NCBI GenBank assembly: GCA_028683385.1
Contig: JAQUIJ010000011.1
Span: forward strand, 62,001-126,000
Length of the DNA: 64,000 nt
From: Prolixibacteraceae bacterium
GTDB lineage: Bacteria; Bacteroidota; Bacteroidia; Bacteroidales; Prolixibacteraceae
Direction of reading: 5' to 3'
The notes beneath the pieces are model-generated. The model did not search any database and was not told where the DNA came from. It worked only from the letters and a program-made list of their open reading frames with translations. Position numbers and translations under genes: made by a program. Shown here piece after piece: positions 2,608 through 58,848 of the stretch; the first letter of the stretch is position 1; each line of letters starts with the position of its first letter.

Positions 2608-2613
2608 AAAAGC

Positions 2614-2655
2614 GTCAATAGTCATCAGTAAACCCTTTTTCTAATGACTATTGAC
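2614..2655. repeat. Inverted repeat with 7-nt phased words between yjbQ and uvrA
   Basis: Arms GTCAATAGTCAT (2614-2625) and ATGACTATTGAC (2644-2655) are perfect 12-bp inverted repeats. The right side continues in a 7-nt phase with CTAATGA words up to about 2670, close to the uvrA stop codon at 2676. It sits between two convergent genes and can act as a bidirectional transcription end. It belongs to the heptad-element set described in the findings. Confidence 0.8.
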
Positions 2656-2675
2656 ACTTTCCTAATGACTTGTTC

Positions 2676-5480
2676 TCAGAGTTTGTCCTTTAAAGCTGAG
2701 CCAGTATACGATTCCTGAACTTTTATCAGATCTTCAGGAGTTCCCTGAAATAAAATATTTCCTCCCTCTTTACCGCCTTCCGGACCAATGTCGATCACCC
2801 AGTCAGCACATTTTATCACATCCAGGTTGTGCTCAATGATAATGATGCTGTGGCCTCGCGCAATGAGTGCATTAAACGAGTCGAGCAATTTGCGGATGTC
2901 GTGGAAATGAAGTCCGGTGGTTGGTTCGTCAAAAATAAATAGTGACGGACTTCCCTTTTCTTTGGCCAGAAAAGAGGCCAGTTTGATGCGTTGGCTTTCA
3001 CCGCCCGACAAGGTACTTGATGATTGTCCGAGTTTAACGTATCCCAATCCAACATCTTGCAAAGGTTTCAGCAGTTTTGCAATTTTTTTTGCGGAGGTTG
3101 ATTTGTGGCTTCCAAAGAAATCAATAGCTTCATCAACCGTCAGATCCAGAATGTCGAAGATATTTTTGCCTTCAAAGGTAATTTCCAGAATTTCATCTTT
3201 AAAACGCTTTCCTTTACAGCTTTCGCACTCCAAATGAATGTCGGCCATAAACTGCATTTCAACTGTAATTTCACCTTCTCCCTGGCATTCTTCGCATCGT
3301 CCACCTTCAATATTGAATGAAAAATGCGACGGTTTAAATCCATTGTATTTTGAGCTTTGCAGCTCCGAATATAATTTTCGAATCTCGTCGTAAACTTTCA
3401 GGTAAGTTGCCGGATTCGATCTCGATGATTTCCCGATTGGATTCTGATCGACAAATTCAACTGAAGTAATTAGGTTGAAATCGCCCCGAATAATGTCGTG
3501 TTGTCCGGTTTTTTCGCTGAATCCTCCAAACATTTTTGCCATTGCCGGATATAAAACCTTTGTAACGAGCGATGATTTCCCGGAGCCACTCACGCCGGTT
3601 ACCACACAAATGGTATTCAGCGGAAATTTGACATTTATATTTTTCAAATTGTTCTCTCGAGCGCCGGTAATTTCGATGTAGTTACTCCATTTGCGACGTG
3701 TTTTTGGTACGTCAATTTTTTCTTTCCCGGTGAGGTACTTGGCAGTCATGCTTTCTGAATTTGACTCCAGTTGGTCGTGTGTACCCTTAAAAACAACTTC
3801 GCCGCCTAGCCTACCGGCCAGTGGACCGATATCGATAATTTCATCGGCTTCGCGGATAATTTCTTCGTCGTGTTCAACAACAATAACCGTATTTCCTAGT
3901 TTTTGCAGTTTCCTCAAAACACGAATGAGTCGTTGAGTGTCTCTGGAATGAAGCCCAATGCTGGGTTCATCCAGAATGTACATCGATCCAACCAAACTAC
4001 TTCCCAGTGAAGTTGCCAGATTTATGCGTTGAGATTCGCCGCCTGATAATGTTGCAGAAAGCCGGTTCAGGGTTAAATAGCCCAAACCTACATCGGTCAA
4101 AAAATCAAGTCGGTTGTTTATTTCGGTCAGAATACGTTCGGCTATTTTTGTTTCGTGTTCAGTGAGTCTCAGGTTTAGAAAGAATTTTTGCAGTTCGTCA
4201 ATCGGTAGCAATACCAAATCCTGAACTGATTTTTCGCCGACCTTTACATACATGGCCTCCTTTTTAAGGCGAGTGCCCAAACAATCGGGGCAGTTGGTTT
4301 TTCCACGGTAACGCGAAAGCATGACCCGATACTGAATTTTGTACGTGTTTTCTTCAAGCATTTTGAAGAACTGGTTCAACCCTTGAAAGTGCTTGTTACC
4401 CGTCCATAAAAGGTGTTTTTGTTCTTCGGTCAGTTCGTAATAGGGTTTGTGTATCGGAAAATTAAATTTTTCGGCAGCATAAACCAGTGCATCTTTCCAT
4501 TCTCCCATTTTCTCGCCTTTCCAGCATGCAACTGCATCCTGATAAACTGATAGGGATTTATTCGGAATAACCAGGTCTTCATCAATCCCGATTACTTTTC
4601 CGTAACCTTCGCAGGTTTTACAAGCGCCAATCGGGTTGTTAAAACTGAACATGTGGACGGTAGGTTCTTCGAATTCGATGCCGTCGGCCTCAAAGAGATT
4701 TGAAAAATGCTCTTCCTTAATGATTTCCCCGTCGTAAATTTTAATGATGCACTCGCCATGACCTTCAAAAAAAGCAGTCTGTACCGAGTCGGCGATCCGG
4801 CTCAAGTTGTCTTCATCGTTTATTACGGTAGCACGGTCGATTACAATGTTGCAGGTCGCATCTTTGCATTCTTCCTGATTATTTTCTTTCAGAATTTCAT
4901 CGATTCTCCGAACTTCTCCGCTTATTTCCAGTCGGGAAAAACCTTGCTGTAACAACAATTCAGCTTCCTGAAGTAATGTTCGTCCGTTCTTGAATTTTAG
5001 AGGTGAACACACCATGAAACGGGTATTTTCAGGAAAAGATTGAATGAAGTTGATTACATCGCTCACATGATGCTGTTTGACTTCTTTTCCGGAAATAGGG
5101 GAGATGGTCTTTCCAATTCGGGCAAAAAGCAATTTAAGGTAATCGTAAATCTCGGTGGACGTACCAACAGTCGAACGTGGATTGCGCGTGTTCACTTTTT
5201 GCTCAATGGCAATCGCTGGTGGAATCCCTTTAATATAATCAACTTCAGGCTTATTAATGCGCCCGAGAAACTGGCGGGCATAGGAGGATAAACTTTCGAC
5301 ATACCTTCGTTGACCTTCGGCGTAAAGCGTATCAAAAGCCAGTGATGACTTACCTGATCCTGATAATCCGCTGATTACAATAAATTTATTTCGATCTATT
5401 TTTAAATCAATATTTTTGAGATTATGAACCCTGGCGCCCTTAATTTGGATATATGATGAATAATTTGTTGGAGAACTCAT
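2676..5480 (-). CDS. uvrA: Excinuclease ABC subunit A
   Basis: 934 residues, full length. UvrA binds DNA lesions as a dimer and loads UvrB in nucleotide excision repair. Two ABC ATPase halves are clear. The first has Walker A GLSGSGKSSLAF (about 38-49), the UvrB-binding and insertion region, a zinc finger (CKTCEGYGK...CPDCLGTR), a signature LSGGESQRINLA and DEPSIGLH. The second has GVSGSGKSSLV, a CEECQGEGE...CESCKGKR zinc finger, LSGGESQRIKLA and DEPTTGLH. The ATG at 5480 gives a normal N-terminus. It is monocistronic, with convergent yjbQ downstream and the ECF sigma gene divergent upstream. It shows no defect and looks like the housekeeping copy. Confidence 0.97.
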   Translation of the reverse strand: MSSPTNYSSYIQIKGARVHNLKNIDLKIDRNKFIVISGLSGSGKSSLAFDTLYAEGQRRYVESLSSYARQFLGRINKPEVDYIKGIPPAIAIEQKVNTRNPRSTVGTSTEIYDYLKLLFARIGKTISPISGKEVKQHHVSDVINFIQSFPENTRFMVCSPLKFKNGRTLLQEAELLLQQGFSRLEISGEVRRIDEILKENNQEECKDATCNIVIDRATVINDEDNLSRIADSVQTAFFEGHGECIIKIYDGEIIKEEHFSNLFEADGIEFEEPTVHMFSFNNPIGACKTCEGYGKVIGIDEDLVIPNKSLSVYQDAVACWKGEKMGEWKDALVYAAEKFNFPIHKPYYELTEEQKHLLWTGNKHFQGLNQFFKMLEENTYKIQYRVMLSRYRGKTNCPDCLGTRLKKEAMYVKVGEKSVQDLVLLPIDELQKFFLNLRLTEHETKIAERILTEINNRLDFLTDVGLGYLTLNRLSATLSGGESQRINLATSLGSSLVGSMYILDEPSIGLHSRDTQRLIRVLRKLQKLGNTVIVVEHDEEIIREADEIIDIGPLAGRLGGEVVFKGTHDQLESNSESMTAKYLTGKEKIDVPKTRRKWSNYIEITGARENNLKNINVKFPLNTICVVTGVSGSGKSSLVTKVLYPAMAKMFGGFSEKTGQHDIIRGDFNLITSVEFVDQNPIGKSSRSNPATYLKVYDEIRKLYSELQSSKYNGFKPSHFSFNIEGGRCEECQGEGEITVEMQFMADIHLECESCKGKRFKDEILEITFEGKNIFDILDLTVDEAIDFFGSHKSTSAKKIAKLLKPLQDVGLGYVKLGQSSSTLSGGESQRIKLASFLAKEKGSPSLFIFDEPTTGLHFHDIRKLLDSFNALIARGHSIIIIEHNLDVIKCADWVIDIGPEGGKEGGNILFQGTPEDLIKVQESYTGSALKDKL

Positions 5481-6536: not shown

Positions 6537-6552
6537 ATCTGAAAAAGTATTT

Positions 6553-7481: not shown

Positions 7482-7484
7482 GTG

Positions 7485-11022: not shown

Positions 11023-11049
11023 TTCCGATCATTCAATTCGATTAAATAG

Positions 11050-11077
11050 AAAACCCCGAAAGCAATTTCGGGGTTTT
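11050..11077 (+). terminator. Intrinsic terminator of pfp
   Basis: AAAACCCCGAAA (11050-11061) and TTTCGGGGTTTT (11066-11077) form a perfect 12-bp stem with a GCAA loop, followed by T-rich DNA. It lies 28 bases after the pfp stop. Confidence 0.92.
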
Positions 11078-11093
11078 TATTTTTTGTGCTTCA

Positions 11094-11142
11094 ACTTCCA
11101 ACTTCCGTCTTCTGACTTCTGACTTCGGTCTTCCGTCTCCAT
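11094..11142. repeat. Seven tandem 7-nt words between pfp and the thioredoxin gene
   Basis: From 11094 the sequence runs in an unbroken 7-base phase of ACTTCCA/TCTTCTG/ACTTCGG-like words, ending about where the thioredoxin gene stops (11144). All units are pyrimidine-rich on the plus strand and share a CTTC core. No inverse arm is visible here, unlike at the sister elements. It lies 3' of both convergent genes. Confidence 0.7.
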
Positions 11143-14870: not shown

Positions 14871-14877
14871 TTTTAGC

Positions 14878-14947
14878 GTTTAAGGTTCAAAGTTTAAGGT
14901 TCAATTTCTTTTTAGGAACTTTAAACTTTGAACATGGAACGTTGACC
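14878..14947. repeat. Heptad-phased inverted repeat between S9 peptidase and cytidylate-kinase-like gene
   Basis: Arms GTTCAAAGTTTAAGGTTC (14885-14902) and GAACTTTAAACTTTGAAC (14916-14933) are 18-nt inverted repeats with a single G-T-type mismatch that still pairs in RNA. Both arms are made of 7-nt words (GTTTAAG/GTTCAAA against AAACTTT/GAACTTT), and the word series runs right up to the stop codon at 14948. It probably ends transcription in both directions. Confidence 0.82.
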
Positions 14948-22037: not shown

Positions 22038-24146
22038 TTATTTCAAACCCTTGCGTTTCAAAAGTGGTTCTATCGAAGGTTCCTGACCACGGAAATTTTT
22101 GTAAATAGTCATTCCTTCGTCCGATCCTGATTTGGTTAACAGTGTACGGAATCTGGCAGCAATTTCAGGATTAAAAATATTACCGCTTTGTTTGAAAGCA
22201 TCGAAAGCATCGGCATCGAGTACGGCAGCCCAGGTGTACACATAGTAACCGGCAGAATAACCTCCGGAGAAAATATGTGAAAAATAAGTACTACGGTAGC
22301 GTGGGGCAATTTCTTTAATCAACCCGATTTTATCCATCGATGCTTTTTCAAAGGCTTCCACATCTCCGCTGAACGGAATCGTGTGCCAGTCCATATCGAG
22401 CATTGAAGCTGCCAGTAATTCAACGGTTTCGAAACCCTGATTAAACTGAGCGCTTTTTTCGAGTTTGGTAATCAATTGTTGCGGAATCACTTCTCCGGTT
22501 TTATAATGTTTGGCGTACACGCGAAGAACTTCAGGCTCAGATGCCCAGTTTTCCATGATTTGAGAAGGAAGTTCAACAAAGTCGTTCGGAACACTTCCGG
22601 CAGTGCGGCGGTATGGCCCGTCGGTAAATAATGCATGAAGCGCATGTCCTGATTCATGAAACAAGGTGGTTACTTCGTCGAAACTCAACAATGCAGGAAC
22701 ATCTCCGGATGGGCGGGTGAAGTTGCAAACGATGGAAACCACCGGAGTAATCATTTTGCCATCTTTATATGCCTGGTTGCGGAAAGAAGTACACCAGGCT
22801 CCGTTACTTTTTCCGGCGCGTGGATGAAAATCCATGTAGAAAATACCAATGTGCTTGCCATTAGCTTCCTGAACTTCGTAAGTCATAACTTCAGGATCAT
22901 AAATCGGCAAGTCGGTTCTTTTTATGAATTTGATTCCGTAAAGTTTGTTGGCAGTGTAAATCATGCCGTCGATCACATTTTCGAGCTTGAAATAAGGCTT
23001 CAACTGAGCTTCGTCCAGATCGTATTTGGCTTTCCGGACTTTTTCGGCATAAAACCACCAATCCCACATGTCCAGTTTAAACTTTCCGCCTTCTTTGTCA
23101 ATCATGGCTTGCATATCATCACGCTCTTTTTTTGCACGTTCAAGTGCCGGAGTCCAGAGCTTCATCAGAAGTTCGTTCACCTTTTCAGGCGTTTTAGCCA
23201 TATTCACATCAACCACATAGGCTGCCCAGTTATTAAAACCAAGTAGTTTTGCTTTCTGTTCGCGCAGTTTTACCAGTTTGCCAAGCACTTCTTTGTTGTC
23301 GTTGGCATTTCCGTTATTGCCCCGCATGAGGTAACCTTTATACAATTTCTCGCGAAGTGCGCGGTTTTCGGCAAACTGAAGGAATGGAAGCATGCTTGGT
23401 TTTTGTAGGGTAAAAACCCATTTGCCTTCCAGACTGTCTGCTTTAGCCAGATCGGCAGCAGCAGAAACAACATCGGCTGGCAAACCTTTCAGGTCGGCTT
23501 CATTGTCGATCACCAACTTGAAGTTTTTATTGGTTTCGGCCAATGCATTTTCACCGAATTTAAGTTCTGCCATCGAAAGTTCGTCGTTTAGCTTGCGAAG
23601 TTCGGCTTGTTTTTCTTCAGGCAAATTAGCGCCGCTACGTTCAAAATCCTGGTAATATTTTTCAACAACCCGAAGTTGTTCTGCATTAAGATTTAGATCA
23701 TGCCGTTTTTCATACACTGCTTTCACCCGTTTGAAAAGGTCTTTGTTCAGCATGATGTTGTCGCGGTGCGCCGAAAGTTTTGGAGTGATTTCGCGCGCCA
23801 GAGCCTGCATTTCGTCGTTGGTATTGGCCGAATTCAGGTTAAAAAATACATTGCCTACATTGTTCAGCAAATCGCCCGATACATCAAGTGCCAATATGGT
23901 ATTTTCGAAAGTAGCTTCGTCTTTGTTGTCGGTAATTGCTTTTATTTCAGCGATCTGATTCTCAATTCCGGCATCGATGGCTGGCATGTAATGCTCCAGC
24001 TTGATTTCGTTGAATGGCGGAACCTGAAAAGGAGTGGTGTACTCTTTAAAGAATGGATTGTTCATGTCTTTTTTTTGTTCTTTGGCTGTGTTGCAGGCAT
24101 TAAACATCAATGCAAGTGCAACAAGCGATAACCCGATTTTCTTCAT
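22038..24146 (-). CDS. M3 family metallopeptidase (Dcp-like), lipoprotein
   Basis: 702 residues. The signal sequence ends in the lipobox MFNAC, so it is predicted to be a lipoprotein. The M3 thimet-oligopeptidase/peptidyl-dipeptidase fold follows. The zinc site HEXXH is at 497-501 (FHESGHALHALF), with the third ligand Glu in the downstream ELPSQIMENWASEP helix and the YYVYTWAAVLDADAFDAF substrate-binding segment near the end. It removes dipeptides or cuts oligopeptides in the periplasm. It is a tandem paralogue of the gene at 24177, 30 bases downstream of it, and the two look very similar over their whole length. Confidence 0.95.
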   Translation of the reverse strand: MKKIGLSLVALALMFNACNTAKEQKKDMNNPFFKEYTTPFQVPPFNEIKLEHYMPAIDAGIENQIAEIKAITDNKDEATFENTILALDVSGDLLNNVGNVFFNLNSANTNDEMQALAREITPKLSAHRDNIMLNKDLFKRVKAVYEKRHDLNLNAEQLRVVEKYYQDFERSGANLPEEKQAELRKLNDELSMAELKFGENALAETNKNFKLVIDNEADLKGLPADVVSAAADLAKADSLEGKWVFTLQKPSMLPFLQFAENRALREKLYKGYLMRGNNGNANDNKEVLGKLVKLREQKAKLLGFNNWAAYVVDVNMAKTPEKVNELLMKLWTPALERAKKERDDMQAMIDKEGGKFKLDMWDWWFYAEKVRKAKYDLDEAQLKPYFKLENVIDGMIYTANKLYGIKFIKRTDLPIYDPEVMTYEVQEANGKHIGIFYMDFHPRAGKSNGAWCTSFRNQAYKDGKMITPVVSIVCNFTRPSGDVPALLSFDEVTTLFHESGHALHALFTDGPYRRTAGSVPNDFVELPSQIMENWASEPEVLRVYAKHYKTGEVIPQQLITKLEKSAQFNQGFETVELLAASMLDMDWHTIPFSGDVEAFEKASMDKIGLIKEIAPRYRSTYFSHIFSGGYSAGYYVYTWAAVLDADAFDAFKQSGNIFNPEIAARFRTLLTKSGSDEGMTIYKNFRGQEPSIEPLLKRKGLK

Positions 24147-29062: not shown

Positions 29063-29097
29063 CAAAACGAAATACACACAAAAATATCACTGTTGAA

Positions 29098-30303: not shown

Positions 30304-30324
30304 TACCAAATTAAATTTCTACCT

Positions 30325-33426: not shown

Positions 33427-33439
33427 AATTAAAATCATT

Positions 33440-35095: not shown

Positions 35096-35116
35096 ATCAA
35101 TTAAAGTTTTAAAATT

Positions 35117-35656: not shown

Positions 35657-35684
35657 GCGTTTTAGCATTTTTTGATTGAAATGA

Positions 35685-35821: not shown

Positions 35822-35888
35822 ATATCTTTATCCAAGGTCAACACGAAAAGAATAATTAAGTCAATCTGAAGAACTTAGCTAAAAAATC

Positions 35889-37235
35889 ATGCAGCGAATA
35901 TTTCTAACCTGTATTTCAATACTCATTGTGCAATTCGTTTGCCTGGCGCAAGCTCCTGCAACGTTTATTCATCCCGGAGTATTATCAGGAAAGGCAGAAC
36001 TCGATGAATTAAAAGCTGCTGTTGACGACAATGATGGAAGTCCAAAAGTGGCAGGATATAACCAATTGGCAGAAGAGAGTTTGGGTAATCTCAACTATCA
36101 ACCAACTCCGTATGCCGATGTTTATGTAATCGCTTCGGGAAGTTGCCCTGAGGAGAAGGCCTTTCGCCAGGATGCTCATGCGTTGTACATTCACGCCATA
36201 AAATGGGTGGTTACCGGAAACCTTGCTCATCGCGATAAAGCCATCGAAATTGCCGATGCTTGGGCAAGTAAGTTTGTTCGGATTATTCCTGAAACCAATA
36301 AACCGAACCAATCAACCCTTGAAGCATCATGGGCACTACCCATTTGGGTGGCAGGTGCCGAAATCTTGAAATACTATAATAATGGAGCGTCAGGTTGGTC
36401 GTCGGTTAAATTTGATTGGTTTGTGAGGGAGATACTGAATTATGTCAACGGTAATATCTATCAAACAGCAAACTGGTTAATTTCAAAAGATTTGTCGTTG
36501 ATGGCTTCCGGAGTATTTTTGAATGACAAAGATTTATACAATCAAGGCTATAACCATGTTGTCGGGCAAATTGATCAGATCACTGACGAAGGCGCAATTC
36601 CTGAATTGACGCGTGATTTTGTACATTCGCAATATGTGTTAATTGGCTTGACTCAATGCGCTGAAGTTGCCTTTCAACAAGGCGATAAAGGACTTTTTAT
36701 CAGGCCCGATTCGCGATTGCGAACTGGTGCCGAAGCTTATGTCCAGAACGTTACCGGAGAAAAGGAACCCAATTATTTTACGAGTTCCGTCTGGGCCCGA
36801 CAAAGCGCTCCTTACGAAATATTGCTCAATCGATATACTGCTCTTGGGATTCCGGTTCCGAACGTTAAAAACTATGTCGAAAAATACAACCGGCCAGAAA
36901 ATGGGAGTGAAGACCATTTCGTAGGTTGGTTATCGGCTACATATGCAATTTCAATTTCAGTTAGCACTGGTTCAACAAAAAATCTAAGGAATATTGAAGA
37001 AGCAAAACCGAAGGTTTATCCTAATCCGGCTAACGATTTATTACACATAAGTGGCAAATCATTAATCAGTACAATTCAGGTATATGATAGTTTGGGTAGT
37101 GTTGTTTTAAACTCAAATTCTGTAAATTCATGTTCTGCCAATCTGGACACATCATCATTTAAACCAGGAATGTATCTTTATCGTGTTTCTGATTTGAAAG
37201 GGAATAATAATTCAGGTCGGTTTATCGTGAAATAA
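35889..37235 (+). CDS. Alginate-lyase-family polysaccharide lyase with T9SS sorting domain
   Basis: 448 residues. A signal peptide (about 1-20, ending CLAQ) is followed by an Alginate_lyase (PF05426-type) alpha/alpha toroid domain (about 35-355; FIHPGVLSGKAELDELKAAV, then QSTLEASWALPIWVAGAEIL). The C-terminal 80 residues (about 370-448; KVYPNPANDLLHISGK...GMYLYRVSDLKGNNNSGRFIVK) are a type A sorting domain for type IX secretion, so the enzyme should be displayed at or released from the cell surface. It probably makes the first extracellular cuts in an acidic polysaccharide; the exact uronan is not established. Confidence 0.85.
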   Translation: MQRIFLTCISILIVQFVCLAQAPATFIHPGVLSGKAELDELKAAVDDNDGSPKVAGYNQLAEESLGNLNYQPTPYADVYVIASGSCPEEKAFRQDAHALYIHAIKWVVTGNLAHRDKAIEIADAWASKFVRIIPETNKPNQSTLEASWALPIWVAGAEILKYYNNGASGWSSVKFDWFVREILNYVNGNIYQTANWLISKDLSLMASGVFLNDKDLYNQGYNHVVGQIDQITDEGAIPELTRDFVHSQYVLIGLTQCAEVAFQQGDKGLFIRPDSRLRTGAEAYVQNVTGEKEPNYFTSSVWARQSAPYEILLNRYTALGIPVPNVKNYVEKYNRPENGSEDHFVGWLSATYAISISVSTGSTKNLRNIEEAKPKVYPNPANDLLHISGKSLISTIQVYDSLGSVVLNSNSVNSCSANLDTSSFKPGMYLYRVSDLKGNNNSGRFIVK

Positions 37236-37329
37236 GGAGTTCGATAAAATTCAAAATTCAAAAAAAATGAAAATGAATCGAGCCATGAGAGATAGCCACA
37301 AACACGAGAATGACTATTTTGGCGAGTTC

Positions 37330-37349
37330 CCTGTCTGCCGACAGGCAGG
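37330..37349. repeat. Short imperfect palindrome of the CCTGTCTGCCGACAGGCAGG type
   Basis: The 20-base palindrome is nearly self-complementary with a few G-T-pairable positions. I recall this class as a widespread Bacteroidota intergenic repeat. It lies in the 250-base gap between the two lyase genes and can form a hairpin in mRNA. Confidence 0.6.
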
Positions 37350-37385
37350 CATTTGGCAATTAAAAAACAAATTATAGACAGATGA

Positions 37386-37438
37386 AATAGCCATAAGAGC
37401 AAATGCTCATACAAACCGAAAATGTATAAATGGCTATT
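37386..37438. promoter_or_regulatory. Nested hairpin in the leader of the second lyase gene
   Basis: AATAGCCAT (37386-37394) and ATGGCTATT (37430-37438) are perfect 9-bp inverted repeats. They enclose a small GAGC-AAAT-GCTC stem. The structure ends about 48 bases before the start at 37486. It could be a transcript-stabilising or attenuating leader; function is untested. Confidence 0.4.
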
Positions 37439-37485
37439 CCATGAGTACGTTATAAATTTCAACAAAGCAAAAACATTTTATACGA

Positions 37486-38661
37486 ATGAAAATAAATAGT
37501 TGGTTGATATTTCTTTTAACCATTTCAATGTCGGGGGCTTGTAATGCTGCACAACAAAATCTTCGGAATAAAGTGATTGAGAATGTCAGGCAGCAAACTA
37601 TTCAGCGAGCCGATTCTTTTCTCCAAATAGTGCCTGTTACGGTAACTGCATCGGTTTGTAAACGTAGCGCTGGTGGCAAGCACGATTTTTATTCGGAGGG
37701 TGATTATTGGTGGCCCGATCCTGAAAATCCTGATGGGCCATACATCCGCAAAGACGGGCAAAGCAATCCGGATAATTTTTCCGATCACCGTTTGGCAATG
37801 ATTCGGTTAAACGACATTGTTTCAACTTTAACTTCTGCCTGGCTGTTGACTGGCAAGGAAGAATACGCAAAAAAAGCTATTGTGCACCTGAATGCCTGGT
37901 TTGTTGATACCACAACGCTGATGAATCCCAACATGCTTTATGCACAGGCCATCTGGGGACGATTTACAGGACGGGGCATTGGTCTTATTGATGCGTATCA
38001 TTTGGTCGAGGTTGCTCAATCGGTAAAAATACTTTCAGCAAAAAATGGAATTTCGTTGGATGAATCAGCCAAAATTAAGAAATGGTTTGCAAGTTTTCTT
38101 ACCTGGATGACTACTCACCCTTATGGCATAGAGGAGATGAAGGCAAAAAATAATCATGGGACTTGTTGGGCGGTAACCGCTTCGATGATGGCCGTAATGA
38201 CTGAAAATGCCCAAATGATTGAATTTTGCCGAACTCGTTTCAAAAGTGTTTTGTTGCCGAATCAAATGGCTGCTAATGGAAGCTTTCCGCTCGAACTGGA
38301 ACGCACCAAGCCTTATGGATATTCATTGTTTAATCTGGATGCAATGGCCAATCTGGCTCAAATTTTATCAACTCCGGAAGATAATCTATGGACTTATCAA
38401 ACTCAAGATGGCCGATCACTTCAGAGAGGAATGGATTATTTATTTCCCTATATTCAGGATAAGAACAGCTGGCCATTTGCGCACGACATATTTATCTGGG
38501 AAGAATGGCCGGTGCGCCAATCCTGTTTGTTATTTGCCGGATTGGCCTATCAAAATACCAATTATATTGAAACTTACCTGAAATTACCTGCCCTGGTAAT
38601 TCATCCTGAAGTTATCCGGAATCTGCCAGTCAGTCATCCGGTTATTTGGCTGATGAATTAG
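37486..38661 (+). CDS. Alginate-lyase-family (PL38-like) polysaccharide lyase
   Basis: 391 residues. The signal sequence ends SGACNAA and may be a lipobox (SGAC). The alpha/alpha-toroid domain has KHDFYSEGDYWWPDPENPDGPYIRKDGQSNPDNFSDHRLAMIRLND (about 65-110), YAQAIWGRFTGRGIGLIDAYHLVE, KNNHGTCWAVTASMMAVM and GSFPLELERTKPYGYSLFNLD. These segments resemble PL38-type lyases that act on alginate or glucuronan; the assignment is by recall. No T9SS domain is present, so it should be periplasmic or anchored. Its stop is 5 bases from the convergent HTCS stop, the end of the locus. Confidence 0.82.
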   Translation: MKINSWLIFLLTISMSGACNAAQQNLRNKVIENVRQQTIQRADSFLQIVPVTVTASVCKRSAGGKHDFYSEGDYWWPDPENPDGPYIRKDGQSNPDNFSDHRLAMIRLNDIVSTLTSAWLLTGKEEYAKKAIVHLNAWFVDTTTLMNPNMLYAQAIWGRFTGRGIGLIDAYHLVEVAQSVKILSAKNGISLDESAKIKKWFASFLTWMTTHPYGIEEMKAKNNHGTCWAVTASMMAVMTENAQMIEFCRTRFKSVLLPNQMAANGSFPLELERTKPYGYSLFNLDAMANLAQILSTPEDNLWTYQTQDGRSLQRGMDYLFPYIQDKNSWPFAHDIFIWEEWPVRQSCLLFAGLAYQNTNYIETYLKLPALVIHPEVIRNLPVSHPVIWLMN

Positions 38662-38666
38662 ACGGT

Positions 38667-41600
38667 TCACTCCGTGTTTTTAAGGTCATTCATATAGGCC
38701 GATGGTGTTTTCCCAAATTGCTTCTTAAAACTTTGTGTGAAATACGAGTGCGAGTTAAAACCAACCGCATAACCAATTTCATCGATGTTGTAGTTGCCAT
38801 CCTTCATTAATTGAATCGCTTTTTTTAAGCGGATATACCGGATAAATTCGGAGCTCGACTGGTTAGTGAGCGCCCTTATTTTGCGGTGTAACGAACTTCT
38901 ACTGATGTTTAATTCGAAAGCAAGCGTTTCAACGCTGAAGTTTACATCCTGCAAATGACGGTCGATAATACGGATTGATTTATTGACCAGATGTTTGTCG
39001 GCTGGCATCAAAGAAGTATCGCCTTCCCATTCCTCCTGAGACTTGAAAAATACCTCCTGAAGCTTTTTACGCGATTTCATCAGGTTTTTTACCTGAGCCA
39101 TCAGCAACTGATCCTCAAATGGTTTGGTCATATAAGCATCGGCTCCGGTTTGTAAGCCACTGATATGCTTATCGGTGTCCGACAATGCGGTTAGCAAAAT
39201 AACAGGAATGTGGCTGGTTAAGGTATCTTCTTTTAATTGGGAACACAATTCGAAGCCATTTTTACCAGGCATCATCACGTCTGAAATAATCAGATCAGGA
39301 GAAAATTCTGCGGCAACTTCGAATCCCTGAATACCGTTTGAAGCTGTTAAAATATGAAATTCTTTCTGAAAGATGTGTCGCATGTGCTTTTGCATTTCCA
39401 GATTATCTTCAACAATCAGAATGGTTTGCCCACTCGGGTGAGATTCCTCAGCTATTTCATTCTCAGTTTTTGGGGCCGACCATCTTTCCTCCAATTTTGT
39501 ATTTTCAGGAACTATCATGCTTTGTGCCGGAATAATCAGTGTGAAAACTGATCCTTTTTCGGGTTCCGATTCTACATAAATGGCACCATTGTGCATCTTT
39601 GCGTATTCGCGGCACAGATGGAGTCCAATGCCAGTTCCCTGATTCAACGATCCTGACCCTTGATAAAAACGATCGAAAATAAGTGGCAATTCATTCTCGG
39701 CAATACCACTCCCGGAATCTTCAACCCGCAACTCAATACATGGACCTTCGGGAATTTCATTGGTACAATAACCCAATTTTAAGAGCTTACTGCACGTTGA
39801 ATGCTGCGAAAGACTGATCTTTATTTTGCCGCTTTCAGGAGTGTATTTAAAAGAATTAGATAAGAAATTAAAGATGATTTTATCAATCTTTTCTTCATCT
39901 ATCGGGCAAAACAATGGTGATGTTTCCGAATAAAAGCTAAAATCGATTTTATTATCTTCAGCGTAAACTTTATAAAAATCACAAATTTCCAGGCACAACT
40001 TCACAAGGTCTTTTTGTTCCGGATGAAAGGTTGATTTACCAAGTTCAATCTTTCTGAAATCAATTACCTGAGCAATAAGACGCTTCAGCCGTTCCGCATT
40101 GCGACGTATCATTTGTAAATGATCGTTTGTATCGGGATCAAATTTTCGTTGGCTAATAATATGCTCTAGTGGCGACAGAATCAACGTGAGCGGCGTTTTG
40201 AATTCGTGCGAAATATTGGTAAATAGCTGAAGTTTAGATTGGTGCAATTCTTCTTCTTTCTCGTTTTTTACGCGTTCAATCAAAAGTTCGTTTTTGAGGT
40301 TCTGTCGATTCAATATTTCCTTTCTAATAAAAATTGAAGTAATAACGAAAAAACACAGGTAAAAGAAATAAGCATATCCGGTTCTCCAAAATGGAGGTTG
40401 AATGGTAATATTTAAGTGGGCGAGATGTGAACTCCAGATTCCATCGTTATTCGATGCCATTATCTCTAATGTATATTTTCCCTCCGGAATTTTGGTGAAG
40501 GTTGCTTTTCCTTCGGTTCCGGCATCAATCCATTCTTCGTTATAATTTATCAACCTATATTTAAAATGATTTCGTTCAGGGAGAATATAATTGGTGGCTA
40601 TAAACTCAAACGATAATGAATTGTCATTAAATGGTAGTTTGATTGCTGAAAGTGTTGTAATAAAATCAAATTTGCTATTGGAGTTGCTATCTACAAGGTC
40701 GTTGTTAATAAACATTTTAGTGATCCTAACTTCAGGTTCATAGGTGTTTAGCACTATTTTGTTTGGAGTTAAAAAGTTGTATCCGTTGGGTCCTCCAAAG
40801 AGGAAAAGTCCTTTTGAAGTTTTAAATGCAGCTCCAGGATTAAACTGGTTTCCCTGTAACCCATCTTCCTCATGAAAATTCCGGAAATATTTTTTTTCGG
40901 GATTATAGCATGAAATCCCGTTCTCGGTTGAAAACCACATAAAGTGTTGATCATCTTCCAGAATGCCGTAAACATTATCACCAGCCAGTCCATCGTTCTT
41001 TGTTAAATTGCTAAATTTTCCGGTGTTCGGATCATAAAAATCGACACCATTACCTCCTGTACCAATCCACACTTTACCTGAATGATCTTCGCAAAGGGCA
41101 AAAATCTCATTGTTACTGATACTGTTTTTGTTTGGAGATCGCATATAGCGCATAAACTTACTGCTCCCTTTGGGAAGGTAATCTAGTCCATTGTTTGTTC
41201 CCACCCAAATACCGCCATAATTGTCGTAGATCAGGCATCGGGCATTTGGTGATGAAAGCGAAGTTGTATCAGAAGTTACATTGTTAAATTGTTTGATGTC
41301 ATGCGTTTTGAAATCGTAAAAAAGCACCCCGTGACTGAAGCTCGCCAGCCAAAGGCCTTCAGGGATAGGGCAAATTCCGTAAATATGAATCCGTTGATCT
41401 TTTAAGATATTCAATTGGACAAATGTTTTCTTGCTTTTATCGAAGTACCACAATCCCTTCGAAAAAGTGCCTAGCCAAAGTTTGTTTTCACGATCAACAG
41501 CCATGCATTTAATGTTTGCAGTTTCAACGGTTTCCTGCGGAATTTGGTAATTGCTAAATGACATGGTTTTTAAATCGACAGAGCACAAACTGCCATTTTC

Positions 41601-42707
41601 GCTACCCACCCAAATATTCCCATCTAAATCTTCGGCAAACGAACTAATTACCGATCCTTCGGTATTATTACCTGACGGCACTTGCTGGATATGCAAAAAC
41701 CGGTTGCCATTCGGATTGATATAAGCCAATCCACCCGACCATGTTCCGATCCAAATGCCATTCTGTGAATCGGTATAAAGCGAATAAATACTGTTTGCCG
41801 GTAAATTATTAAAACGGTTGCTCTTAATAATCTGATTTCCTTTTTTTGAGACTTGCAAAATGCCATTGTAAGTTGCAATCCAAATCTGGTTTTGAGGATC
41901 TTTCAGTATCTGCCGAACCCTGTTGTGAGGAATGTAGGTTTTCGATGGTTGATTCTGGTCATAATGCTCTATGATTGTTCCATTTTCATTGACGTGATCG
42001 GCGCCACCCCAATCATAGCCAATCCACATCGTATTATTATCTGAGCATAACGACAAAACCGTTTCTGATTGGTGCTTGCAAAAGAATTCTAGGGTTTGAT
42101 AAGGTGGCGAACTGCGATAAATGGCTCCGCGATTGGTTCCGATCCACAGTTGATTAGAACTGTCGAACGTCACTACGGTCAGATTTTCATTGGCGCCGAA
42201 TCTAAACGGAAGAATTTCGATTTGATCGTTACTTCCCGATTTGAAAATTCCAATGTGGTTGTTAAAAACAGCGAATAATTGCCCATTTTTATTTTCGGCC
42301 AAATCTAATATGCCTGATAAATTGGGTGTTTTCGGGCTGGCGGATAGTTTGACAGGAACAAATTGTTGAGTGCGGTAATTTAAGTAACAAGGTCCATTTA
42401 AGGTAATCACCCAAAATTTACCGTTCTGAGTTGTAAAAAGCTTTCGGATGTTATTCGACGGGAGCGAATTTGTGTTGCCAGATGCAGGTATATATTTATT
42501 GAATTCTTTACTGTTGTAATTGTATAATCCATGCTCGGTACCAAACCAGATGTATCCCAGTGAATCTTGCGTTATTGTCCGGATGGCGCCATAGGTAAAT
42601 CCACCTTTTGGAGATACTTGTCTGAAAATTATTGGATCGTTTTGTCCAATAACTTTGAGTTGAAAAAGAATGCAAATTAGTAATATCCGGAGGTGTTTCC
42701 CTGTCAT
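38667..42707 (-). CDS. Hybrid two-component system (HTCS) sensor-regulator
   Basis: About 1346 residues from the ATG at 42707, which puts the signal peptide (KHLRILLICILFQLKVIGQ) first; an ATG at 42746 would add 13 residues. It has two periplasmic beta-propellers of Reg_prop repeats (about 30-690; DSLGYIWFGTEHGLYNYN, NNIWVGSENGSL, GKVWIGTGGNGVDFYD) and a Y_Y_Y domain (about 690-770). A membrane helix follows. HisKA contains His834 in SHEFKTPLTLILSP, followed by an HATPase with DSGSGIAENEL. The receiver has Asp1143 in IISDVMMPG, and an AraC-type HTH follows (NISRSSLHRKIRALT). It senses an oligosaccharide and activates the adjacent locus. Confidence 0.96.
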   Translation of the reverse strand: MTGKHLRILLICILFQLKVIGQNDPIIFRQVSPKGGFTYGAIRTITQDSLGYIWFGTEHGLYNYNSKEFNKYIPASGNTNSLPSNNIRKLFTTQNGKFWVITLNGPCYLNYRTQQFVPVKLSASPKTPNLSGILDLAENKNGQLFAVFNNHIGIFKSGSNDQIEILPFRFGANENLTVVTFDSSNQLWIGTNRGAIYRSSPPYQTLEFFCKHQSETVLSLCSDNNTMWIGYDWGGADHVNENGTIIEHYDQNQPSKTYIPHNRVRQILKDPQNQIWIATYNGILQVSKKGNQIIKSNRFNNLPANSIYSLYTDSQNGIWIGTWSGGLAYINPNGNRFLHIQQVPSGNNTEGSVISSFAEDLDGNIWVGSENGSLCSVDLKTMSFSNYQIPQETVETANIKCMAVDRENKLWLGTFSKGLWYFDKSKKTFVQLNILKDQRIHIYGICPIPEGLWLASFSHGVLFYDFKTHDIKQFNNVTSDTTSLSSPNARCLIYDNYGGIWVGTNNGLDYLPKGSSKFMRYMRSPNKNSISNNEIFALCEDHSGKVWIGTGGNGVDFYDPNTGKFSNLTKNDGLAGDNVYGILEDDQHFMWFSTENGISCYNPEKKYFRNFHEEDGLQGNQFNPGAAFKTSKGLFLFGGPNGYNFLTPNKIVLNTYEPEVRITKMFINNDLVDSNSNSKFDFITTLSAIKLPFNDNSLSFEFIATNYILPERNHFKYRLINYNEEWIDAGTEGKATFTKIPEGKYTLEIMASNNDGIWSSHLAHLNITIQPPFWRTGYAYFFYLCFFVITSIFIRKEILNRQNLKNELLIERVKNEKEEELHQSKLQLFTNISHEFKTPLTLILSPLEHIISQRKFDPDTNDHLQMIRRNAERLKRLIAQVIDFRKIELGKSTFHPEQKDLVKLCLEICDFYKVYAEDNKIDFSFYSETSPLFCPIDEEKIDKIIFNFLSNSFKYTPESGKIKISLSQHSTCSKLLKLGYCTNEIPEGPCIELRVEDSGSGIAENELPLIFDRFYQGSGSLNQGTGIGLHLCREYAKMHNGAIYVESEPEKGSVFTLIIPAQSMIVPENTKLEERWSAPKTENEIAEESHPSGQTILIVEDNLEMQKHMRHIFQKEFHILTASNGIQGFEVAAEFSPDLIISDVMMPGKNGFELCSQLKEDTLTSHIPVILLTALSDTDKHISGLQTGADAYMTKPFEDQLLMAQVKNLMKSRKKLQEVFFKSQEEWEGDTSLMPADKHLVNKSIRIIDRHLQDVNFSVETLAFELNISRSSLHRKIRALTNQSSSEFIRYIRLKKAIQLMKDGNYNIDEIGYAVGFNSHSYFTQSFKKQFGKTPSAYMNDLKNTE

Positions 42708-42734
42708 AATCCTGCGCCTGTATGAATTTGGTTT

Positions 42735-42742
42735 CAAAATTA
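42735..42742 (-). promoter_or_regulatory. Candidate -7 box (TAATTTTG) of the HTCS gene
   Basis: On the minus strand the bases read TAATTTTG, matching TAnnTTTG. It lies about 28 bases before the ATG at 42707, supporting that shorter start; the ATG at 42746 would be upstream of the promoter. Confidence 0.4.
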
Positions 42743-42943
42743 GCAATAATTCATACCCATTGGTTAATTGTTTGCTATTATGAATTTTACAGTTGTTTCA
42801 ATTTGGAACATGATTGACAATTGCGACTTGAAAATCTTACAAATTTGTTTTTCTGAAATTTGGGCATAAATATCTTGTTATGTGATGAATCAACTTATCG
42901 TTATTTACAACTCATTTTTCTTCCCATCCCCTGAAATTTTATT

Positions 42944-45529: not shown

Positions 45530-45563
45530 GAGTTGCGGGTTTTTATCTCGGAACCCGCAACTC
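45530..45563. repeat. Heptad-type inverted repeat upstream of the first EamA gene
   Basis: GAGTTGCGGGTT (45530-45541) and AACCCGCAACTC (45552-45563) are perfect 12-bp inverted repeats with a 10-base centre. The words AACCCGC/AACTCGG run in a 7-nt phase. The same GTTGCGGGTT word recurs in the element at 55545-55599 and in the array at 48645-48728. Confidence 0.78.
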
Positions 45564-45585
45564 GGAACGATTTAAAACTTCTCAA

Positions 45586-47633: not shown

Positions 47634-48101
47634 ATGAAGACGACAATACTTTTACTGCTGATCATTTTTGTTTTGTTTTCCTGTACCGAAAAGAAACCAG
47701 CCGCCAATCCACAGGTTTTGCTGGATGCTGATATTGCCTTTTCTGATTATTCAGTCAAACATGGCATTCAAAAGGCATTCATTGAATTTGCCGACGATAG
47801 CGTGGTTTTGCTGAAACCCAAACGGATGCCCATCGTCGGGAAATTAAACCTGATTAAGAGTTACGAAGGCAAAAGTGACAGCGGAGTTGTGCTAACCTGG
47901 AGCCCTGCTAAAGCGATAATTGCAAAAAGTGGCGAGCTTGGCTACACTTATGGCTTTTGGACATTTATAGCTAAAACCGATACTTCACACGGGACTTACA
48001 TGACAGTCTGGAAGAAAGATCCAACGGGCCTGTGGAAATACATTGCTGACACTGGGAATGAAGGACTTTCAAACAAACAGGAAAATGGAAACAGTCATTA
48101 G
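47634..48101 (+). CDS. DUF4440/SnoaL-like lipoprotein
   Basis: 155 residues. The signal ends with lipobox LFSC (Cys17). The domain from about 30 to 145 (VLLDADIAFSDYSVKHGIQKAFIEFADDSVVLLKPKRMPIVGKLNLIKSYEG...TYGFWTFI...GTYMTVWKKDPTGLWKYIADTGNEG) matches the DUF4440/NTF2-like cone fold. Such proteins bind small molecules, but many have no known activity. Its last codons are part of the downstream inverted repeat. Confidence 0.88.
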   Translation: MKTTILLLLIIFVLFSCTEKKPAANPQVLLDADIAFSDYSVKHGIQKAFIEFADDSVVLLKPKRMPIVGKLNLIKSYEGKSDSGVVLTWSPAKAIIAKSGELGYTYGFWTFIAKTDTSHGTYMTVWKKDPTGLWKYIADTGNEGLSNKQENGNSH

Positions 48102-48156
48102 TCATTCGGAAAGCTGGTTTTCAATGACTTTTTCCCAATGACTAATGACTATTTCC
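48087..48156. repeat. Heptad-type inverted repeat between convergent genes
   Basis: Arms 48087-48106 and 48137-48156 are 20-nt inverted repeats with one mismatch; the core is AGTCATT twice against AATGACT twice, 7-nt periodic. The left arm includes the last codons and stop of the 47634 gene; the right arm abuts the stop codon of the 48157 gene exactly. It is a likely bidirectional terminator. Confidence 0.85.
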
Positions 48157-48543: not shown

Positions 48544-48644
48544 TGAGTCGTTTTTTAATGATGATTTCTCAGAATAAAGGTAGAGCATCCAAATATAGGT
48601 TAATTTCTGAGATTCCACACTTCGAAAGCCTGGGAGCGGCACCT

Positions 48645-48728
48645 CCAACTTCTATCTTCCGTCTTCCGGTATTTGAATTTGTTGCGGGTTCCGAGTTAAG
48701 CTTCGGTCTTCCGACTCCCGACTTCTCC
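48645..48728. repeat. Array of twelve 7-nt words flush with the DUF3078 stop codon
   Basis: Counting from 48645 gives exactly twelve 7-base units to 48728, ending at the base before the stop codon of the next minus-strand gene (48729). Several units share CTT/CCG (CCGTCTT, CTTCCGA, CTTCGGT), and the centre contains TGTTGCG/GGTTCCG. It is the longest uninterrupted member of the heptad-element set. Confidence 0.75.
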
Positions 48729-54386: not shown

Positions 54387-54390
54387 AAAA

Positions 54391-54454
54391 GTGTTCAGTG
54401 TTCAGTCGCAGTTTTCAGTTTTACCAATTGCGACTGATCACTGCGACTGATTAC
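54391..54454. repeat. Heptad-type repeat between the aldolase and GntR genes
   Basis: Nine 7-nt units run from 54391, the first two both GTGTTCA. Arms TCAGTCGCAGT (54402-54412) and ACTGCGACTGA (54440-54450) form a perfect 11-bp inverted repeat. It starts 5 bases after the aldolase stop and ends 4 bases before the stop codon of the convergent GntR gene. Confidence 0.75.
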
Positions 54455-54457
54455 TTT

Positions 54458-55471: not shown

Positions 55472-55501
55472 GTTCCTGCGATTGAAAGCCCGAAATTACG
55501 A

Positions 55502-55532
55502 AAAAAAGGCAAACCAAACGGCTGCCTTTTTT
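55502..55532 (-). terminator. Terminator hairpin downstream of sucD
   Basis: AAAAAAGGCA (55502-55511) pairs perfectly with TGCCTTTTTT (55523-55532). On the minus strand it ends in T's and is well placed to terminate the sucCD transcript; the AT-rich ends could also work the other way. Confidence 0.78.
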
Positions 55533-55544
55533 GATGTTTTAGCT

Positions 55545-55632
55545 GTTGCGGGTTGCGTGTTACGGGTTAACTTGCAACCCGAAACTCGCAACTCGCAACA
55601 TCAATACTGTAAACTGCGACTGACTACTGATC
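55545..55632. repeat. Long heptad inverted repeat after sucD
   Basis: A left arm at 55545-55568 (starting GTTGCGGGTTGCG) and a right arm at 55576-55599 (ending CGCAACTCGCAAC) are 24-nt inverted repeats with 21 of 24 positions pairing. The words repeat every 7 nt. A second word family, ACTGCG/ACTGAT, runs in nearly 7-nt steps from about 55607 almost to the sucD stop codon at 55635. Confidence 0.82.
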
Positions 55633-55634
55633 AC

Positions 55635-57738: not shown

Positions 57739-58073
57739 TTCAAAAAATAATTATGGGTTAGTATGATTTTTATTGGTTATCGAACGATGTTCAGGTTTTT
57801 TTGGACTGAATTACCCGACCAATAACCGCATTATCTATCAGCATTTAAATATCTGCATAATTAGATTAATCAGAATGATCTTTTCTGCATTTTTAAAACA
57901 TATCAACATTTTAATTCCGGTTTGGTTTTTGAAATTTCTAAAGAAACGCATAAAAGAAAGTTAAATTTTAATATTTCTGAATTGCGATTGTTCCGATTCG
58001 CTTAAAATGGAAGTGTATTTGCGCCTGATTAAACTTTTTTAGCCTATTTTTGCAGCTCATAAAAACAAACCAA
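57739..58073. other. Divergent intergenic region between sucC and kdsD
   Basis: 335 bases. The kdsD side has TATTTTTG at 58045-58052, a full match to the -7 consensus, giving a leader of about 15 bases before the ATG at 58074. On the sucC side I see no clear box. Short frames here are not convincing genes. Confidence 0.5.
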
Positions 58074-58682
58074 ATGCTCGAAGATATTAAACAGGTTTTA
58101 CGGCAGGAAGCCGAGGCCATTCAAAATATTCCGGTAACTGAGGCGTACGAAAAGGCAATCAACATCATCGAAGAACGTGTTCATCAATTGAAAGGTAAAC
58201 TGGTTGCTTCCGGAATGGGGAAAGCCGGGCAAATAGCCTTGAACATAGCCACTACTTTTAGCTCTACCGGCACGCCTGCTGTATTTTTGCACCCGAGCGA
58301 TGCGCAACATGGCGACTTAGGTGTAATTCAGCCGAATGACGTACTTTTACTTATTTCAAACTCCGGGAAAACTCGCGAAATACTTGAACTGGTTCAGTTG
58401 GCTGAAAATCTTTATGAAGGACTACCGTTAATTGTGATTACCAGTAATAGCGAATCGGAACTTGCGCAAATGGCAGATGTTTGCCTTGAAACCGGTAACC
58501 CAAAAGAAGTTTGTATTCTCGGACTGACGCCAAGTACTTCAACCACGGTAATGACTGTTATCGGCGATGTTTTGGTTGTTATGATGATGAAACGAATTGG
58601 CTTCAACAACGAAGAATACGCCAAACGCCATCATGGCGGTTATCTGGGACATAAATCGCGGATGCAGGCGGGATTGAAATAG
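58074..58682 (+). CDS. kdsD: D-arabinose 5-phosphate isomerase, SIS-only
   Basis: About 202 residues from the ATG at 58074; the TTG at 58050 overlaps the -7 box and is rejected. Sugar isomerase (SIS) motifs are present: VASGMGKAGQIALNIATTFSSTGTPAVFLHPSDAQHGDLGVIQ (about 43-85), LLISNSGKTREILELVQLAENL and HHGGYLGHKSRM near the end. There is no CBS pair, as in the short Bacteroides-type enzymes. It makes D-arabinose 5-phosphate for Kdo synthesis (LPS). Its stop codon is directly followed by a 7-nt phased repeat. Confidence 0.88.
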   Translation: MLEDIKQVLRQEAEAIQNIPVTEAYEKAINIIEERVHQLKGKLVASGMGKAGQIALNIATTFSSTGTPAVFLHPSDAQHGDLGVIQPNDVLLLISNSGKTREILELVQLAENLYEGLPLIVITSNSESELAQMADVCLETGNPKEVCILGLTPSTSTTVMTVIGDVLVVMMMKRIGFNNEEYAKRHHGGYLGHKSRMQAGLK

Positions 58683-58815
58683 TGATCAGTGCACAGTCAC
58701 AGTTCCCAGTAAATTAGTCATTTTATGGTCAATTACTTCGTGTCATTCATAGTAGAAATGAGTCTGAATTTACGATCAATGACAATTGAATGACCTAATG
58801 ACAATGAATGACAAC
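58683..58815. repeat. Heptad-type repeat between kdsD and the hydrolase gene
   Basis: Starting at the kdsD stop codon, words such as TGATCAG and TGCACAG follow in an approximately 7-nt phase. A second block with TGTCATTCAT (58741-58750) is inverted relative to ATGAATGACA (58804-58813), a perfect 10-bp pair. AATGAC words are shared with the element at 48087-48156. The ATG triplets in this element are part of the words, not starts. Confidence 0.65.
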
Positions 58816-58848
58816 AAATTAAGATTTGAAACTTTTAACTTTTATAGA

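What the first reader, a model, noticed from the sequence alone, without database searches (positions are those of the whole stretch)
2608..58848. Nine intergenic elements built from 7-nt words, all just 3' of genes
Seen directly: at 2614-2670, 11094-11142, 14878-14947, 45530-45567, 48087-48156, 48645-48728, 54391-54454, 55545-55632 and 58683-58815 the sequence falls into a steady 7-nt phase. The words differ between sites (GTTCAAA/GTTTAAG, AATGACT/AGTCATT, ACTTCCG, GTTGCGG, GTGTTCA/ACTGCGA), yet the architecture is shared. Most fold into inverted repeats whose two arms obey the same phase. All nine follow a gene end, five between convergent genes, and several touch stop codons. Bidirectional termination is plausible, but simple terminators need no heptad rule and no word sharing. 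Inference: an unnamed repeat family or a templated duplication process that rewrites 3' spacers.
Basis: partly seen in the sequence, partly recalled or inferred. Interest (0 to 1): 0.78.

Follow-up and report, generated by a model that had tools for sequence, protein, structure and literature searches.

The report
Scrambled seven-letter repeats between genes
Gaps between genes in these Bacteroidota genomes often hold mirror-facing runs of seven-letter DNA words, partly fixed and partly scrambled, that are swapped for other words between close relatives; the pattern is real, but what writes or spreads it is unknown.

Summary
The observation largely holds. In 0.89 Mb of this Paludibacter-like genome, spacers show excess self-matching at lags 7, 14 and 21 (z 15.3, 7.6, 6.2), in convergent and tandem spacers but hardly in divergent ones. 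Seven of the nine sites pass a strict 7-nt test; two (54391, 58683) do not. A close relative (G012) repeats the pattern.

The elements are arrays of degenerate heptads (GTTNCGN, GTTYCAR, GRAGWCN, TNGTCAN and others), often paired as facing arms: 42 convergent pairs to 1. Two or three positions per heptad vary, and neighbouring units of the GTTNCGN family are no more alike there than random units, so they are not fresh slippage copies. Of 39 element-bearing spacers with a G012 ortholog, 21 have changed, 12 of these still with a heptad array; slot 54387-54457 carries three families in three sister species. No close copy (40 nt at 90%) was found for any of 105 element regions in the sequence held. 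The terminator scans flag none of the nine, and no clear link to RAYT genes was seen.

Best reading: a phylum-wide, REPIN-shaped, fast-turnover spacer element with unknown machinery; a new variant of a known kind.

The parts
2614..2670 (.). AATGACT-type heptads and inverse (GTCAT...ATGAC) between convergent genes
   Evidence: score 8.8, 0/300 shuffles; conserved in G012 with small changes
11092..11140 (-). single-arm array, GRAGWCN family read on the minus strand (ACTTC/GTCTTC on plus), abutting the stop of the minus-strand gene
   Evidence: in G012 the spacer is 101 instead of 121 nt
11049..11078 (.). separate terminator-like hairpin before the array (context, not part of it)
   Evidence: conserved in G012
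14871..14947 (.). doublet of GTTTAAG/GTTCAAA heptads facing CTTTAAA/GAAC heptads; fills the whole convergent spacer
   Evidence: G010 has a GTTCCAA-type doublet in the same spacer
45530..45567 (.). GTTNCGN-type doublet, downstream of a terminator-like hairpin; left end inside a called ORF that probably starts later
   Evidence: GTTCAAG-type words in G018
48122..48156 (.). CAATGAC/TAATGAC heptads; with TCATTCGGAAA at the stop codon they form facing arms between convergent genes
   Evidence: conserved in G012
48641..48728 (.). CTTCCGT-type arrays flanking a GTTGCGG piece, tandem genes; replaced in G012
54387..54457 (.). slot A: AGTGTTC/ACTGATC doublet with mixed 6- and 7-nt steps, convergent genes; not significant on the strict 7-nt test
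   Evidence: RNA fold z -7.7
55545..55632 (.). slot B: GTTNCGN doublet plus ACTGCGA-type words next to the stop of the minus-strand CoA-ligase gene
   Evidence: score 11.9
58683..58815 (.). CAGT words at the stop codon, then spaced GTCAT/ATGAC words; not significant on the strict 7-nt test; replaced by CCCTCTCC palindromes in G012 and G003

Best explanation
A real class of dispersed spacer elements, which I call inverted heptad doublets: two arrays of mostly 2-6 degenerate 7-nt units facing each other across a short loop (single arms also occur), each family with fixed positions and two or three nearly free ones. They work like REPIN- or MITE-type passengers: they sit in spacers that are not promoter-only, spread or are rebuilt as palindromic units, and turn over fast at the same slots, where other heptad families or other palindromes replace them. 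The fixed positions are kept because something reads them: an unknown mobilising enzyme, or ectopic recombination and gene conversion in 7-nt register among family members. Shown: phase, facing polarity, fixed and free positions, independence of neighbouring GTTNCGN units, slot turnover, occurrence in other Bacteroidota. Inferred: that they spread as units, that conversion scrambles them, that most are passengers.
For: Period-7 excess in spacers of G000 and G012. Polarity: facing pairs 19 to 0 over five families, 42 to 1 for GTTNCRN doublets pooled over the genus, with overlaps and orthologs, and 18 spacers to 1 when each G000 or G012 spacer counts once. Fixed and free columns found without a preset skeleton. 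Skeleton positions change less than free ones in retained arrays: ratio 0.26 (24 arrays) and 0.39 (31 arrays) against 0.85 and 0.99 in neutral simulation. Turnover: 21 of 39 spacers changed against about 32% of 193 segments of other spacers; slot B held by a GTTNCGN doublet in 10 of 17 distinct genus sequences, another heptad doublet in 2, plain palindromes in 4, a long composite in 1. GTTNCGN x3 in 30, GRAGWCN x3 in 34, GTTYCAR x3 in 21 of 296 phylum genomes.
Against: No near-identical copies, which a recently active copy-and-paste element should leave: 0 of 105 element regions with a same-genome match of at least 40 nt at 90% (15%-19% of each genome searched; 4 of 109 regions over 220 nt dropped), against 32 of 684 other windows, which are longer (median 90 against 65 nt). 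At 30 nt the elements do have more such matches, 15 of 105 against 46 of 684. Whole-genome searches with two doublets found best full-length matches of 86% and 82% (in one search only 40 of 47 G012 candidates were scored). No target-site duplication or clean empty site was shown. No clear heptad doublet beside the 8 Y1_Tnp loci. A column-based test found no significant constraint on fixed columns (0.072 against 0.086, p 0.34).
Confidence: 0.45

Rival explanations
1. Functional transcript-end or insulating hairpins: spacers are selected to carry some stem after a gene, any word will do, and the heptad phase is a by-product of how stems arise.
For: At slot B each of 17 distinct genus sequences has some palindrome after the terminator-like hairpin (by eye). 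Slot-A elements fold strongly (z -7.7 G000, -5.8 G003, -4.1 G012, -2.9 G007). GTTNCRN doublets fold somewhat better than with their free bases permuted (mean z -0.76, s.e. 0.19, 42 elements).
Against: Element windows as a class fold little better than other convergent or tandem spacers (median z -1.28, n 104, against -0.88, n 280). Free positions pair less than fixed ones (59% against 77%), and between GTTNCGN arms they match at chance in a cruder count (GTTNCAN arms slightly above chance). No T tract rule; the scans flag none of the nine. Hairpins need neither a 7-nt rule nor a fixed polarity.
Confidence: 0.25
2. Slipped-strand replication makes 7-nt tandem copies, which then decay; inverted arms come from snap-back copying. 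The 7-nt step reflects the polymerase, as others proposed for heptameric repeats (cited in PMC4692102, passage).
For: Some phylum genomes carry long perfect arrays of the same words. Position 6 of GTTNCRN keeps memory along arrays: 0.80, 0.76, 0.66 at distances 1-3, global 0.59. TNGTCAN position 7 and, less, GRAGWCN positions 5 and 7 are alike within arrays. Single spacers differ by about three units (11092 array).
Against: In GTTNCGN arrays neighbours are independent at positions 4 and 7 (0.27 and 0.31, global 0.26 and 0.33; identical neighbours 0.068 against 0.070 permuted). Plain decay would not spare the same columns in all arrays of a family. No excess of 7-nt indels between G000 and G012 (spacer length differences show only 7 pairs at 7 against 3 at 6 and 3 at 8). 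No explanation for facing polarity.
Confidence: 0.15
3. Repeat writing: an enzyme working in 7-nt steps from a partly degenerate template extends both 3' ends at a break or cut loop in a spacer, and the ends are joined. New words appear in the same phase and polarity without a donor copy.
For: Facing polarity is what 3' extension of both ends would give. Neighbour independence. Arrays that switch family in phase and doublets nested inside other doublets (by eye). No close donor for the G012 slot-A element among the scored matches in 7 genus genomes.
Against: No enzyme, RNA template or intermediate was looked for successfully. Constraint on fixed positions after birth. Many families per genome would need many templates. 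Arm lengths are weakly if at all correlated (rho 0.26, p 0.09), which does not decide.
Confidence: 0.1
4. Artefact of gene calling, composition or assembly.
For: Gene calls are home-made and the genome is a 54-contig draft.
Against: Shuffles keep dinucleotides; the pattern recurs in a single-contig relative and not in 200 kb of E. coli K-12 (lag-7 z 1.0, 0 of 90 segments).
Confidence: 0.02

Closest known systems
REPINs / REP doublets with RAYT transposases (PMC3116915, passages read)
   Same: Inverted doublets of short repeats in spacers, able to form hairpins, found in many places of a genome
   Different: Arms here are arrays of degenerate 7-nt units in many families; no near-identical copies found; no clear heptad doublet beside the genome's Y1_Tnp genes
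Heptameric intergenic repeats: TAACTGA of Beggiatoaceae, Cyanobacteria and five Bacteroidetes (PMC4679880, abstract and sections 7, 10); GGGAATC and GGGGA(C/T)T of Xanthomonas and Nostoc (PMC4692102, passages)
   Same: 7-nt units in spacers, sometimes interrupted by related heptamers or mixed with other heptamers; Xanthomonas has some facing pairs; length and sequence vary between relatives; most Beggiatoa sets point toward start codons, which matches the direction seen here near starts (my comparison)
   Different: Those are near-perfect repeats of one word; here skeletons with free positions, many word families per genome and facing doublets as the usual form
GTAG/CGTC-tagged REP families (PMC3733652, passages read)
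   Same: Palindromes in spacers, CGTC type reported in Bacteroidetes
   Different: 20-40 bp stem-loops; no heptad phase in the passages read. Plain palindromes replace heptad doublets at slot B in G011, G012, G018 and G329
Short tandemly repeated repetitive (STRR) sequences and small dispersed repeats of cyanobacteria (recalled; the main paper, PMC2527708, is not held)
   Same: Heptamer units, dispersed small elements
   Different: Not compared here

Membership tests
REPIN / REP | Inverted doublet of a short repeat, hairpin-forming, in spacers | tested here: met
   42 to 1 facing pairs, 18 to 1 spacers; folding of slot A
REPIN / REP | Conserved repeat in many similar copies | tested here: not met
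   0 of 105 regions with a 40-nt match at 90% in the held sequence; best full-length 86% and 82% in whole genomes
REPIN / REP | Same repeat beside a RAYT gene | tested here: not met
   8 Y1_Tnp loci: own short palindromes by eye; in about 530 nt each side no doublet, one loose three-unit GTTNCRN match at L240 and a T-rich score at L241
Heptameric simple sequence repeat | Tandem 7-nt units in spacers | tested here: met
Heptameric simple sequence repeat | Units near-identical, neighbours most alike | tested here: not met
   81 distinct units among 304; neighbour identity 0.068 against 0.070 permuted (GTTNCGN)
Intrinsic terminator | GC-rich stem with a T tract | tested here: not met
   none of the nine elements flagged; crude scan, loop limit 8
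Rfam family | Match at the curated threshold | tested here: not met
   0 matches in the window
MITE / transposable element | Target-site duplication or clean empty site | not tested
   changed spacers were printed but no systematic junction test was made

The most novel reading that the evidence does not exclude
A bacterial repeat-writing activity, telomerase-like in logic, rewrites spacers with 7-nt words from a partly degenerate template by extending both 3' ends at breaks or hairpin loops, so that phase and polarity persist while the words change and no donor copy exists.
Probability: 0.1. Interest if true: 0.95.

Novelty: new variant of a known kind. Interest (0 to 1): 0.66.

Why it matters
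If right, spacers of many Bacteroidota are occupied by a fast-evolving element class that obeys a rule (7-nt step, facing polarity, fixed and free positions) which neither REP elements nor plain microsatellites explain. It poses a testable question: what reads or writes a degenerate heptad skeleton. It also bears on annotation, on promoter and terminator choice in Bacteroidota, and perhaps on the unexplained heptamer repeats of Beggiatoa and Cyanobacteria.

Tried and rejected
Terminator reading as the main account: not supported. RAYT link: looked for, no clear link. Fresh slippage as the source of the variation: not supported for GTTNCGN; TNGTCAN and part of GRAGWCN are less clear. Indels in multiples of 7 between G000 and G012: no excess. 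Folding as the unifying feature: weak. A first polarity count with two-unit arrays and one mismatch was mixed (GTTNCRN 39 facing, 21 back to back; TATTGRN 3 and 5; TNGTCAN 28 and 1); I then used stricter settings (8 to 0 and 19 to 0). In some searches the family patterns fix some positions in advance, so their conservation there is by construction; the relatives' contigs were scanned unmasked, coding included. Three high-scoring 'elements' (C2:343818, C17:314665, C17:314812) look like longer repeats whose period is a multiple of 7 (by eye). The Rfam scan gave nothing. Searches stopped on script errors: 16 gave only counts, 18 gave its spacer results but not the coding control, which came.
Full report
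What the window is. It is G000:C37:62001-126000 of a 5.9-Mb, 54-contig genome. The best named matches to one window protein are MAGs labelled Bacteroidales, Bacteroidetes and Paludibacter (records of the genome itself may be left out). Relatives G012 (single contig; 99% identity at the CoA-ligase protein) and G003 (98%) are in the same genus. G012 is syntenic with most of the window; gene ends flanking 380 of 536 spacers were found in the fetched part of G012, median identity 93.2%.

Is it real? I analysed 891,717 bases of G000 (C2, C17 complete; C37 2001-146000) with a home-made gene caller and 536 spacers of at least 25 nt. Self-matching at lag 7 has z 15.3, lag 14 7.6, lag 21 6.2; convergent 5.7, 5.3, 3.5; tandem 14.5, 5.8, 3.4; divergent 2.0, 0.2, 2.3. 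Nearby lags are raised too (6: 11.0; 8: 10.4; 15: 4.4; 20: 3.5), 7 being the peak. A column-consistency scan gives 54 elements above score 10 for period 7; periods 4, 5, 6, 8, 9, 10, 11, 12, 13 give 10, 3, 3, 17, 5, 2, 0, 1, 3, and 14 gives 16. In G012: 60, against 10, 7, 4, 14, 4, 3, 0, 1, 3 and 14. E. coli K-12 (200 kb): z 1.0, 0 of 90 segments. Named Paludibacter-like contigs: lag-7 z 7.7 but lag 8 7.9, and 14 of 260 segments for period 7 against 12 and 10 for 8 and 9, so the peak is not specific there. Other Bacteroidota: z 6.4, 13 of 355 segments, 10 for period 8. Non-Bacteroidota: z 2.2, 3 of 78 segments, 0 for the four other periods. Seven of the nine listed sites pass individually.

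Where they lie. Regions with an element (score over 10): tandem 36 of 359, convergent 6 of 84, divergent 2 of 93 in G000; 41 of 449, 6 of 107, 1 of 125 in G012. In tandem spacers they are not clearly tied to the stop (24 nearer the stop, 21 nearer the start).

Anatomy. De novo clustering of 135 elements (score over 9; 64 in G000, 71 in G012) gave 16 clusters: GAAGaCc (28), cCGcAAC which is GTTNCGN read on the other strand (27), tAGTcAa (19), taAACTT (15), AAtTCAT (10), and smaller ones. In the second the column maxima are 0.45, 0.84, 0.86, 0.37, 0.99, 0.91, 0.94. Arrays of one family in one spacer face each other: 19 to 0 over five families with three or more units, 8 to 0 with two exact units; 42 to 1 for GTTNCRN doublets over the genus (overlaps and orthologs included); 18 G000 and G012 spacers to 1. 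Near stops arrays are sense 65 to 19, near starts antisense 31 to 6; for doublets this follows from their polarity. In the capped hit lists, every opposite-strand pair within 150 nt that I could see by eye, 12 of them, faces inward. Stretches fetched around hits in other families show the same doublets, with arms nearly complementary in genus g19 (chosen because they were hits); L251 and L255 look like the same trpD-trpC spacer in two genomes (my reading, untested).

Unit independence. GTTNCGN: 82 distinct arrays, 304 units, 81 distinct units. Neighbours match at position 4 with 0.27 (global 0.26) and at position 7 with 0.31 (0.33); identical neighbours 0.068, permuted 0.070. Position 6 keeps memory (0.80, 0.76, 0.66; global 0.59). 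GTTNCAN: 0.30 (0.31) and 0.39 (0.36). GRAGWCN: position 5 0.54 (0.47), position 7 0.36 (0.28). TNGTCAN, 24 arrays: position 7 0.56 (0.34), so its arrays do differ from each other; within arrays no family shows an excess of identical neighbours clearly beyond permutation.

Pairing. In a crude count free positions of GTTNCGN arms match at chance (0.27 and 0.26, shuffled 0.27 and 0.35), those of GTTNCAN slightly above (0.35 and 0.42, shuffled 0.28 and 0.35); registers may be wrong. By folding, 42 doublets are somewhat more stable than with free bases permuted (mean z -0.76, s.e. 0.19); 59% of free and 77% of fixed positions are paired.

Turnover. Of 44 element-bearing spacers 39 had an ortholog in the fetched part of G012: 18 conserved at 75% or more, 21 changed, 12 of the changed still with a heptad element; 68% of 193 random segments of other spacers were conserved. 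Slot A (54387-54457): G000 AGTGTTC words, G012 GTTNCGN, G003 GTTYCAR, G007 AGTGTTC words, 71-78 nt; 14 further genomes had only the right anchor. Slot B (55472-55634), 17 distinct sequences: 10 GTTNCGN doublets with different free bases, 2 GTCATT doublets, 4 plain palindromes, 1 composite. Between G000 and G003 the slot-B doublet differs at 4 places, all at free position 4 (by eye). In retained GTTNCRN and GRAGWCN arrays fixed positions change less than free ones: ratios 0.26, 0.39, 0.58 at three thresholds, neutral simulations 0.85, 0.99, 0.71. A noisier test by columns shows no difference.

Copies. None of 105 element regions (4 of 109 over 220 nt left out) has a same-genome match of 40 nt at 90% in the held sequence, against 32 of 684 other windows, which are longer and include ordinary repeats; at 30 nt it is 15 of 105 against 46 of 684. 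The window's slot-B doublet has a best other match of 86% over 56 nt in its whole genome. The G012 slot-A doublet, searched in seven genus genomes, has full-length matches up to 82%, and short ones up to 100% over about 20 nt (40 of 47 G012 candidates scored). At least one of the G000 and G012 slot-A elements is younger than their split; the G000 one was not searched.

Distribution. Of 296 phylum genomes 30 hold GTTNCGN x3, 34 GRAGWCN x3, 21 GTTYCAR x3. Some carry scrambled versions, others long perfect arrays. The reversed control pattern is rare for the first, but for GRAGWCN it is frequent in several genomes, so that pattern is less specific.

What is known. See Closest known systems. Nine full-text searches of an open-licence library listed no account of inverted doublets of degenerate heptads; I read parts of three papers and looked for terms in two more (PMC2442094, PMC3733652).

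Judgement. Phase, polarity, fixed and free positions and turnover are shown. Spread as units, or writing in place, is not. I favour a REPIN-shaped passenger class with an unknown sequence-reading agent (0.45), then transcript-end hairpins (0.25), slippage (0.15) and in-place writing (0.1).

Noticed in passing
window 26393-42892: About 16.5 kb of the window is missing at the syntenic place in G012, where the two sides lie 47 nt apart; a possible island.
   Followed up: no
window 22038-24146 and 24177-26282: Two neighbouring minus-strand genes of 702 and 701 aa cross-match between G000 and G012 at about 77% nucleotide identity: tandem paralogs.
   Followed up: no
L236-L243: Eight Y1_Tnp (PF01797) loci in the own genome, several flanked by short palindromes such as GAGCCTACGGCTC or GACGGCAAAGGATA-type repeats.
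   Followed up: partly
slot B in G011, G012, G018, G329; slot 58683 in G012 and G003: Plain palindromes (TGTAGAGAC...GTCTCTACA; CCCTCTCCAAAGGAGAGGG) sit where other species have heptad elements.
   Followed up: partly
L263 (G322:C1:691600-691900): A GRAGWCN-type doublet lies in a stretch open over its whole length on both strands in at least one frame, as if inside a gene.
   Followed up: no
G012 ortholog of G000 C2:214443: A GTTNCGN-type doublet nested inside an AGT/ACTG doublet, where G000 has a single ACTTC array: concentric nesting.
   Followed up: no
slot B of G006: A 285-nt composite of several palindromes folds with z -17.4.
   Followed up: no
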